From NCBI GenBank assembly GCA_903813345.2, contig CAIIXF020000009.1:32152740-32216739 (forward strand): a DNA stretch of 64,000 nucleotides, written 5' to 3'. The translations under genes were made by a program, and so were the position numbers. Below are positions 29,901 to 32,900 of this stretch, in pieces. Position 1 is the stretch's first letter. Each line of letters starts with the position of its first letter. The DNA is from Owenia fusiformis. Lineage: Eukaryota > Annelida > Polychaeta > Sabellida > Oweniidae. Below the pieces are notes generated by a model. It saw only the letters and a program-made list of their open reading frames with translations. It ran no database searches and was not told where the DNA came from.

Positions 29901-32900
29901 TTTAAGTACTCGTATTATATAGATATCAAAAGATGTACCTACTTGTAATGACTTGACTTTCTTGCCCACGTAGATAGTATTGAAAGGGGTTATGACAACC
30001 AGAGTGGCGAGACCTGCAAATGCAGCCACCCCTAGGAGCTGGTAGAGAAAGTAAGACACAAGGGCAATCATAAGTGGACCTGAAAAGCAAAACAACAATT
30101 ACATGATATATCACTGGTATTTGATTTATTTTGAAGTTTAGGTAGACAGTTACAAAAATGGGTCCCCTTTACTAAATGTACATTAGTATTTGCCATATCT
30201 CCCTACTCCCAAGTACATTCTGGGCACTTATCTCCCCTTATTTGAAAAATTCTAGGAGTGTACCTGCCTGTATCAGAGTGCATTCTTGGACCTTACCTCC
30301 CTTCAAATAAAGTGGATTCTGATCACCCTCCCTCCAAGCCTGCAATGCATTCTGGGATCTTACCTCCCTACTCCTAAAAGGATTCTGGGAGCTCAACTCC
30401 CAACATCACAGAGCATTCTGGATGCTTACCTCCCCATGCATAAAGTGGATTCTGGGAATTAATGAACCAAACTCCCCTCCACACTCTCAGTCAATTCTTA
30501 GAGCTTACCTCCCCATACCCAGTGTATGTTCTGGGGTGCATCCTGGAGTTTCTGAGCATCAACGCTCATGAGGTTGACAATCTCACCAACAGTTGTGTTC
30601 TTCCGGGCCTGGCTGTTGATCCTCAGAGCCTTCAAGAATAAAGAACAGGTTATCCTTGCCATGTTGTATTAATTACAAAGGTACAGCACTTGTTTGGTGA
30701 CAAACATTGAGATGCAGATCTTTAGCTTTACTTTTCCGATCTAAAGGTTTCAAAGTAAATTATAGTACATTGTCTCATTGAGTTCTACAATGCCTTAAAG
30801 TTAGAGATTATCCCTTATTTTTATGTACATGTATCTATTCATATACATATCAGGCCCGTAGCCAGAATTTTTCAAGGGGGGTTCACTTTTCACAAAAATT
30901 CTAGGGGGGTTCACTTTGGTAAATTTGGCCAAAAATCACTCAAAAAATAGTCAGAATGGTTAAAAACTGCATAATTTTGGAAGAAATTTGGGCCAGGGGG
31001 GTTCACCTGAACCCCCCCCCCCCCTGGCTACGGGCCTGCATATATCAAATCAAAACTACCTTCCGATAAACGGCTGCAGATACAGCAGTCCTAAACCTCA
31101 TCCCTGATTGTGTTACACAATTCATTAAATGTTGTTGAGACAATGTAACCATGAAGCTGATGAGAAATAAACCCACAGCAAGTAGTAGACCCTGCCATTG
31201 GAACCCATCTACAGAACTTATATAGTTCACAAGTAGCCTGAAAAACTTGTTTTTTTATGGGACAGAAGCCAAATTGATTAAAGGTTCAAGGTTAAAGGAG
31301 AAGCCTAATTTTCTAAGGGGACAATGCTCAATTCTCGCTCCCCCATTCTTCACTTTTTGTCCTCCACCCCCCCCCCCCAACTTTGTCAATACCTATCTTC
31401 CTAGTGGAGTCAAAGGTCTCACGTACCTTTCTATAGACAGCCGCAGTGACTGCAGTGCGGAATCTCATGCCAAGTATGTATGAGCTATTTAAAGCATGCT
31501 GAACAAAAGCTGTGACGCAGAAACTCACAAAAAATAAGGCCCCAGCCAGAAGAAAACCTTGCCATTGGAACTCAGTGGCTGAGTTCATGTAGCTTAACAG
31601 TACCCTGTGAAATAAAAAATGCTAATAAAAATTCAGTTGATGATTTATTGTGCATTATTTAGTACATATAAAGAAGTTATTTACCAGGAGGGATTTGATA
31701 TCGGGAATATCACAAGGATGATATCAATATTTCCCTAGGAAATGCAGTGAAAGAGGAAAATATTGATATTAGTTATTAATTTTTTTATATTTTATTGAAT
31801 TGTAAGACTGATCGCTATAAATAAATAAATAAACTAAACTATCATCCCGATATGAATTACCTGGTCAAGAGCAATCTCTAACTAAAATTTTGAAAAAGAA
31901 GTTTTGAAAAGATTTAGATTTAGAAAAAAATAAAAAATATTGAAGAGTGAAATGTTCTGAAAAAATAAAAAAATTTTGAAACATAAAAAATTGAAAAAAT
32001 GAGACTGATATCAATATCATCCCTCAAATGCTGATATCATCCCCAATATCATCGCTGTCACAAATATGTGATTTATCACTTGCTATACCTGATATTGCTC
32101 TGACCATGCTAATGCTAACTGACACTAAGTTGCACTGAATGTTGACTTAGGGTGGATTAAATAAGCTTCAAGACTAGAAAATGGCAACTCAATGGAGTAG
32201 CAAATCCCAACAAACACTATATCCGTTAATCTTTATATGTCACTATGTAATATTCACCACCCTTGATTAAATTATTGGCAGATATTAAAAGACATCCATT
32301 AGAGATATATTAGAATTTTCAATGATTTAAGCATTTGGTGACCATTTAGGAGGTTCAAAGGCACAAATCATAAAAACAACACAATATTTGAGATCTAATC
32401 TAGTATCATCTAAGTAATAGCAAATTCCTACTCTAGGCAGCCATTTTGAATTTTCAGAGGCACACATCATAAAAACACTAGCATAAAATTCCATCAATTT
32501 GAGTATAATATAGCAATACTTTAAAAAGATTACAAAATTACTGCGAAATTCCACAATAGGTAGCCATTTTGAATTTTACGAGGCCGGAATCAGAAAAACG
32601 ATACAATATTTGCTAGTTTCTCTAAATTGCCTTTCATTTGAGTATAATAAAGCTATACTTCAGAAAGATCTCAAAATTAACTCAGAATCCTGTTCCCCCA
32701 ACATGCACGGTCCTGGGGGTCAGGGTGAAAACAGAGAATATATATGTGAAATAGATAGATGTGAATATACTACCAAAATTTCAAACAAAAATATTTATTA
32801 CTTTGGTTCAAAATGAAAAACTTAAGATTTTTGTGAAAAACTCCCATGATTTTTAAAGCAGCGTCAATCTTGAAAAATATGTTTATTGCATAAAACTGTT

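What the first reader, a model, noticed from the sequence alone, without database searches (positions are those of the whole stretch)
31060..31604. Two interchangeable copies of exon 9 in an ABCC1-like transporter
Seen: exons 31604-31427 and 31237-31060 are both exactly 178 nt, both enter with one base and leave in phase 0, both have intact splice sites, and both encode the same MSD1 block (QWQG ... GMRFRTAV ... AAVYRK) with different helix residues. 178 is not a multiple of three, so including both or neither breaks the frame: a classic mutually exclusive pair. Known: the Drosophila MRP gene also has alternative internal exons, as I recall. Inference: the pair tunes substrate recognition in MSD1, since the differences fall in membrane helices. 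The intron between them is only 189 nt, which may itself help prevent joint splicing.
Basis: partly seen in the sequence, partly recalled or inferred. Interest (0 to 1): 0.75.

Follow-up and report, generated by a model that had tools for sequence, protein, structure and literature searches.

The report
Swappable exon pair in MRP1 transporter
A gene for an MRP1-type membrane pump, in what looks like an annelid worm genome, carries two different versions of one exon of which a working message can hold only one; such swappable exons are already known in this gene from other animals, so this is a well-supported new example rather than a new kind of thing.

Summary
Confirmed. Window 31604-31427 and 31237-31060 (minus strand) are two intact 178-nt copies of "exon 9" inside a nearly complete MRP1-type gene (39167-5795; NCBIfam MRP model 1668.9 bits, cut-off 1470). 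Either copy alone keeps the frame. Both together give a stop within 9b; neither gives a stop just after exon 8.

The copies share 34 of 59 residues; synonymous sites are saturated (pS 0.76) while nonsynonymous change is lower (pN 0.28), so both look long maintained, although a small tree gives 9b the longer branch. Genome searches list no other such pair; no third copy was found in the window.

Best reading: mutually exclusive exons, untested in RNA.

Independent tandem exon duplications in MRP genes of several phyla are already in print (Yue et al. 2017, seen only through citing papers). The host is a lophotrochozoan, probably the annelid Owenia. Verdict: new member of a known kind.

The parts
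31427..31604 (-). exon 9a, 178 nt; VLLSYMNS...[15 protein letters not shown]
   Evidence: chosen by a spliced alignment to MRP1; AG/GT borders
31060..31237 (-). exon 9b, 178 nt; LLVNYISS...[15 protein letters not shown]
   Evidence: chosen, with the same phases, when 9a is masked
31238..31426 (-). 189-nt intron between the two copies; one match in the genome (itself); candidate branch points 134 and 148 nt from its 5' end
34425..34643 (-). exon 8, upstream partner (its 5' border is uncertain)
30509..30629 (-). exon 10, downstream partner
31605..34424 (-). 2,820-nt intron before 9a; holds a 14-nt exact complement (33187-33200) of 31293-31306 in the inter-exon intron (weak lead)
30630..31059 (-). 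430-nt intron after 9b, containing a G/C-rich self-complementary repeat
5795..39167 (-). MRP1-type gene model: MSD0, MSD1, NBD1, MSD2, NBD2 and C-terminus; the first coding exon was not found and a few small 5' exons are uncertain
   Evidence: TIGR00957, 1668.9 bits, cut-off 1470; best solved match MRP1

Best explanation
One exon of an ancestral MRP1-type gene (the block coding for the stretch before TM7, TM7 and its cytoplasmic extension) was duplicated in tandem in this gene's own lineage. Both copies have since been kept as mutually exclusive alternatives. SHOWN from sequence: both copies are intact, homologous and frame-compatible singly but not together or both skipped; their divergence is dominated by synonymous change; searches list the pair once in the genome. 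INFERRED: the spliceosome joins exon 8 to either 9a or 9b and then to exon 10, giving two pump isoforms that differ in the first part of the exon and in TM7 but keep the cytoplasmic stretch (14 of the last 15 residues identical). Double-inclusion and double-skip messages carry early stops upstream of many exon junctions and would be removed by nonsense-mediated decay, which would act as a backstop; what makes the primary choice is unknown.
For: Exact length, phase and splice borders. The spliced-alignment score falls only from 252.1 to 237.8 when 9a is masked and 9b used, but to 160.0 when both are masked. pS 0.76 against pN 0.28 over 58 codons; 19 of the 34 identical residues use different codons. 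Identities of 9a and 9b to each of 13 other sequences differ by at most 3 residues. The split 9a+9b against the rest has SH-aLRT 89.5 and ultrafast bootstrap 93. Splice sites of both copies lie within the range of the gene's other sites: donors above 21 and 10 of 27, acceptors above 12 and 19 of 27 (two small uncertain 5' exons left out). MRP genes are an established place for such exons (PMC6071210; PMC9741552).
Against: No RNA data of any kind. No RNA pairing clearly above controls, steric block or U2/U12 mismatch was found that would enforce exclusivity. No close unbroken copy of an exon 8-9-10 junction was found in the genome. The tree gives 9b a longer branch than 9a (0.66 against 0.12). 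Equal length, frame and homology are not proof: such features were shared by 90 of 16,180 fly X-chromosome exons annotated as constitutive or differentially included (PMC3228551), and only 26 of 65 internal exons predicted by them were annotated as mutually exclusive, which the authors take for an underestimate.
Confidence: 0.85

Rival explanations
1. One copy (most likely 9b) is a relic: an exon duplicate that is no longer spliced into mRNA and happens still to be open.
For: No transcript evidence; the 9b donor scores lower than that of 9a (7.0 against 10.2); exon-9 tree branch lengths are 0.12 for 9a and 0.66 for 9b.
Against: With synonymous sites saturated, a relic would have lost most residues and gained stops: at 0.75 neutral substitutions per site mean identity was 14 of 59 and 5% of 5000 runs stayed stop-free. 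9b is about as close as 9a to 13 other sequences taken one by one and keeps both splice sites; its acceptor scores higher than that of 9a (8.9 against 6.4). A recent relic, dead for only a short time, is not excluded.
Confidence: 0.07
2. The pair works as an on/off switch: joint inclusion or joint skipping is itself a regulated output that lowers pump level through nonsense-mediated decay, besides or instead of producing two pumps.
For: Both non-exclusive products carry early stops, and nothing seen in the introns prevents joint inclusion: ordinary branch-point distance and GT-AG sites.
Against: Does not explain why both copies are kept as good TM7 sequence; a simple poison exon need not code.
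Confidence: 0.06
3. Assembly error or a second gene or haplotype has placed an exon from elsewhere here.
For: A 2,533-nt exact direct repeat in another intron of this gene shows that duplication or assembly problems can occur nearby.
Against: The copies are only 60% identical in DNA, the block and the inter-exon intron each match one place in the genome, and the two group with each other rather than with any of the other ABCC exon 9s in the tree.
Confidence: 0.02

Closest known systems
Drosophila MRP (CG6214) alternative exon clusters
   Same: Same gene family; internal homologous exons used one at a time; eight interchangeable exons in the large cluster (passages of PMC6071210; section of PMC9741552).
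   Different: Here one cluster of two; whether the fly exons cover the same block of protein was not tested (no fly sequence at hand, original paper not held).
MRP tandem exon arrays across animal phyla (Yue et al. 2017, RNA Biol 14:1399)
   Same: Independent exon duplications in MRP genes of different phyla, as told by citing papers. From memory its abstract names Annelida, Mollusca and others and studies Capitella.
   Different: Paper not held, so whether this very exon or this species is in it is unknown; no competing RNA pairing could be shown here.
C. elegans mrp-1 homologous exon event
   Same: Same family; described as coinciding in the structure with the fly event but unrelated to it (PMC9741552, Fig. 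5 legend).
   Different: Position relative to exon 9 not tested.
Vertebrate ABCC1 exon 9
   Same: Homologous protein block (MRP1 chain residues 349-406).
   Different: Single copy in vertebrates (recalled, not tested).

Membership tests
[quoted passage not shown]
   TIGR00957 1668.9 bits over residues 1-1482 of the 1483-aa model, cut-off 1470; best solved matches are MRP1 chains, 1459 bits, ahead of ABCC3 (1359) and ABCC2 (1241)
MRP1/ABCC1-type transporter | Orthology to vertebrate ABCC1 rather than to ABCC2/3/6 or a worm-specific branch | tested here: inconclusive
   Exon 9 alone places the vertebrate ABCC1 sequences nearer to other genes of this genome than to the window gene, with weak support; no whole-gene tree was made
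Mutually exclusive exons (tandem duplicated pair) | Neighbouring internal exons, homologous, of similar length, with the same splice borders and frame | tested here: met
Mutually exclusive exons (tandem duplicated pair) | Joint inclusion or joint skipping disrupts the frame (not required of every such pair) | tested here: met
Mutually exclusive exons (tandem duplicated pair) | Each transcript holds exactly one of the two | not testable with these tools
   no RNA data
Docking/selector (competing RNA pairing) control | One intronic element complementary to an element at each exon, conserved between species | tested here: inconclusive
   Best pairings of the three introns were reached by 2, 12 and 18 of 40 shuffles; one 14-nt exact complement between intron 8 and the inter-exon intron (6 of 1000 shuffles reach it; besides the inter-exon intron itself, 1 of 122 other 189-nt intron windows of the gene does). 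It is a single pair, not competing, and no other species was at hand
Steric exclusion by a short intron | Branch point too close to the 5' splice site (limit of about 60 nt recalled) | tested here: not met
   likely branch points at 134 and 148 nt of 189; sites at 16 and 40 nt also fit the loose motif but lie 173 and 149 nt from the acceptor, which is unusually far
U2/U12 incompatibility | Mixed spliceosome types | tested here: not met
   both exons have ordinary GT-AG sites scoring like the gene's others

The most novel reading that the evidence does not exclude
The pair is an independently evolved, lineage-restricted two-state pump switch. 9a and 9b swap residues at two aligned leukotriene/glutathione contact positions (bovine L381: Val or Gln; F385: Leu or Met) and so give one gene two substrate profiles chosen by tissue or life stage.
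Probability: 0.2. Interest if true: 0.5.

Novelty: new member of a known kind. Interest (0 to 1): 0.3.

Why it matters
If both isoforms are made, this may be one more case of evolution widening the range of an export pump by swapping one exon of MRP rather than by a new gene. It would add a clean two-exon system in a probable annelid, in which the protein difference is 25 residues and two known contact positions, simple enough to test directly in a transport assay.

Tried and rejected
Third copy or other duplicated exons: tblastn of 31 of the 32 exons listed (the 25-nt one was too short to query) against the window gave only short weak matches besides 9a/9b, among them cross-matches of the two nucleotide-binding domains and the start of the exon at 24144, which lies in a tandem repeat. 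Paired copies in paralogues: (15 and 14 matches at E up to 10; the tool scores only its best candidates) no other two matches lie closer than about 25 kb. RNA pairing between the three introns: no support except one weak 14-nt complement; the long-duplex scores are not informative (ranks 29, 30, 4 and 18 of 100 shuffles). In one search the count of 2 of 123 control windows includes the inter-exon intron itself, so it is 1 of 122 others. Retrocopy carrying an exon 8-9-10 junction: a protein search listed 28 matches; the one long unbroken match across the three exons, on C8, is only 29% identical. Cavity-face enrichment of the 9a/9b differences: not found; the two contact positions both differing is not surprising when 16 of 28 residues in that stretch differ. 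Alignment caveat: HMMER aligned 9a to MRP1 with one compensating gap pair, which would put L381 opposite Gln35 in both copies; I used the ungapped alignment because the 12 paralogous exons examined have the same length. Identifying the host: COX1, GFP and molluscan haemocyanin gave no match; the last two rang in no control genome, so they show nothing. The Hox search did help. Rfam: 0 matches at gathering threshold in the window. Pfam on the two 59-aa peptides: nothing over cut-off.

Yue et al. 2017 was looked up by DOI and by PMC id and is not held. None of the rows listed described this pair; several lists were cut (20 of 41 papers shown, 20 of 28, 10 of 51, 10 of 58), and the library holds open-licence papers only, so this is no proof that it is not in print.

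Rows left out: L008 and L010 (near copies of L007 and L009) were not used in the tree or the rate comparisons; the C8 match (E 0.86) was not fetched; two small uncertain 5' exons were left out of the splice-site scoring.

Full report
Observation. The two exons are present as described. 9a is window 31604-31427 and 9b 31237-31060, both on the minus strand, both 178 nt, both entered after an AG with a single G that completes the last codon of exon 8, and both ending ...YRK followed by GT. Translation confirms the frame logic: 9a alone and 9b alone run on into exon 10, both together reach a stop inside 9b, and neither reaches a stop directly after exon 8.

The gene. The minus strand from 39167 to 5795 encodes a nearly complete transporter, ending ...DAGLV followed by TAA. 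The first coding exon was not found and a few small 5' exons in the model are uncertain. The protein matches NCBIfam TIGR00957 (MRP) with 1668.9 bits, above the cut-off of 1470, and its best solved relatives are MRP1 chains, ahead of ABCC3 and ABCC2. Whether it is the strict orthologue of vertebrate ABCC1 is open, because the exon-9 tree places vertebrate ABCC1 nearer to other genes of this genome, with weak support.

The pair is single and old. In the genome (498 Mb, 525 contigs) searches with 9a and 9b list 15 and 14 matches at E up to 10. Apart from the pair itself, no two lie closer than about 25 kb. Twelve paralogous exon 9s were examined (ten, two; two of the ten are near copies of others); by my reading of their borders 12 of 12 give the same 178-nt exon, one of them with a GC donor. 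No third copy and no other duplicated full exon was found in the window (31 of 32 exons queried). 9a and 9b are split from the rest with SH-aLRT 89.5 and ultrafast bootstrap 93, the latter just under the usual 95 (58-residue alignment of the pair, 10 paralogues and three vertebrate rows). So the duplication most likely happened in this gene's lineage after it split from the paralogues sampled.

Both copies look constrained. They share 34 of 59 residues, and 19 of those use different codons; over 58 codons pS is 0.76 (saturated) and pN 0.28. Against 13 other sequences, identities of the two copies differ by at most 3 residues. On the other hand the tree gives 9b the longer branch (0.66 against 0.12). 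In neutral simulations with 0.75 or 1.0 substitutions per site, 0 of 5000 runs kept 34 identical residues and 4-5% stayed stop-free; at 0.5 the first figure was 0.1% and at 0.3 it was 22.5%. The last is hard to reconcile with saturated synonymous sites, unless a copy died only recently. Splice-site scores of both copies fall inside the range of the gene's other sites: the 9a donor is the better one, the 9b acceptor the better one. A dead second copy is therefore unlikely, but only RNA can settle it.

What changes in the protein. The exon corresponds to MRP1 residues 348-406 (position = exon residue + 347 in the ungapped alignment). Of the 25 differences, 8 lie in residues 1-16, 16 in 17-44 and 1 in 45-59. 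The cytoplasmic end is thus kept, while the first part and TM7 vary. L381 and F385 of bovine MRP1 lie in TM7 and belong to the pocket for the glutathione part of leukotriene C4 (passages and Table 1 of PMC8267652, which adds that not all proposed contacts are supported by biochemistry; passage of PMC10353158). The aligned residues are Val34/Gln34 and Leu38/Met38. Against a simple tuning story, the differences as a set do not favour the cavity face (moment about 135 degrees away, P 0.22 and 0.08 for two choices of stretch), and both contact positions differing is expected often enough when more than half of the stretch differs. HMMER's gapped alignment would remove the Val/Gln contrast at 381. 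So altered substrate range is plausible, not shown.

How the choice is made. A short-intron block is not supported: likely branch points are 134 and 148 nt from the 5' splice site, and the gene model has a 180-nt intron elsewhere. A mixed-spliceosome mechanism is not supported either, since both exons have GT-AG sites. Pairing between the three introns did not clearly exceed shuffled controls (2, 12 and 18 of 40 shuffles reach the best pairing). A 14-nt exact complement links intron 8 (33187-33200) with the region next to a candidate 9b branch point (31293-31306); it is reached in 6 of 1000 shuffles and, besides the inter-exon intron itself, in 1 of 122 other intron windows of the gene. As one pair without comparative data it is a lead only. 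Frame disruption gives nonsense-mediated decay a role as a backstop, a mechanism described for such pairs in PMC6071210 (Introduction read).

Host. Eleven homeobox matches lie on one strand of C1 (17.97-18.47 Mb); ten were read, with what I take for Lox5, Lox4 and Lox2 homeodomains among them, and a Post1-like gene lies far away on the same contig at 56.85 Mb (names by recall). Lox genes mark a lophotrochozoan. An ordered cluster on chromosome 1 with Post1 further down the same chromosome, in a 505.8-Mb assembly with 12 chromosome-scale scaffolds, is what is reported for the annelid Owenia fusiformis (passages of PMC9977687). The genome held here is 498 Mb in 525 contigs, similar but not the same figure. 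Owenia is therefore likely, not proven.

Known or new. PMC6071210 states that tandem exon arrays in metazoan MRP genes arose by multiple independent duplications across phyla, citing Yue et al. 2017. PMC9741552 describes unrelated exon events in fly mrp and worm mrp-1 that coincide in the structure (section 17 read). I recall that the abstract of Yue et al. lists Annelida and Mollusca and treats Capitella, but that paper is not held. The finding is therefore a new, well-supported member of a known kind. Whether this exact exon or species is already in that paper I cannot tell.

Noticed in passing
window 7243-9775 and 13412-15944: A 2,533-nt direct repeat, 100% identical, inside the 9.2-kb intron before the exon at 7182-7016: a very recent duplication, long terminal repeats of an element, or an assembly artefact.
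   Followed up: partly
window 9917-11614 (+): An open frame of 565 codons between those repeats, with cysteine/histidine knuckle-like motifs near its end by my reading; no Pfam match at E up to 0.01.
   Followed up: partly
window 24119-24352 and 37010-37181: Tandem repeats that overlap splice sites of this gene: copies of an exon's acceptor region (68-nt unit) and of another exon's donor region (50- to 62-nt unit), giving rows of decoy splice sites.
   Followed up: partly
window 18306-19934 and 42174-44478: Two large minisatellites, 86-nt unit x 19 and 68-nt unit x 34; the first lies in an intron of the gene.
   Followed up: no
window 30850-31040: A G/C-rich element with inverted ends in the intron after 9b, resembling a short inverted-repeat transposon.
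   Followed up: no
window 45217-45489 (+): Fragment with a DUF4817 helix-turn-helix domain (E 3.7e-6, 26.9 bits, cut-off 22.6), probably a mariner-like transposase remnant (recalled).
   Followed up: no
G000 C1:17970454-18468329 and C1:56852681-56852848 (L016-L021, L023-L025, L027, L028): An ordered Hox cluster (eleven homeobox matches, all on one strand) with a Post1-like homeobox 38 Mb away on the same contig.
   Followed up: partly
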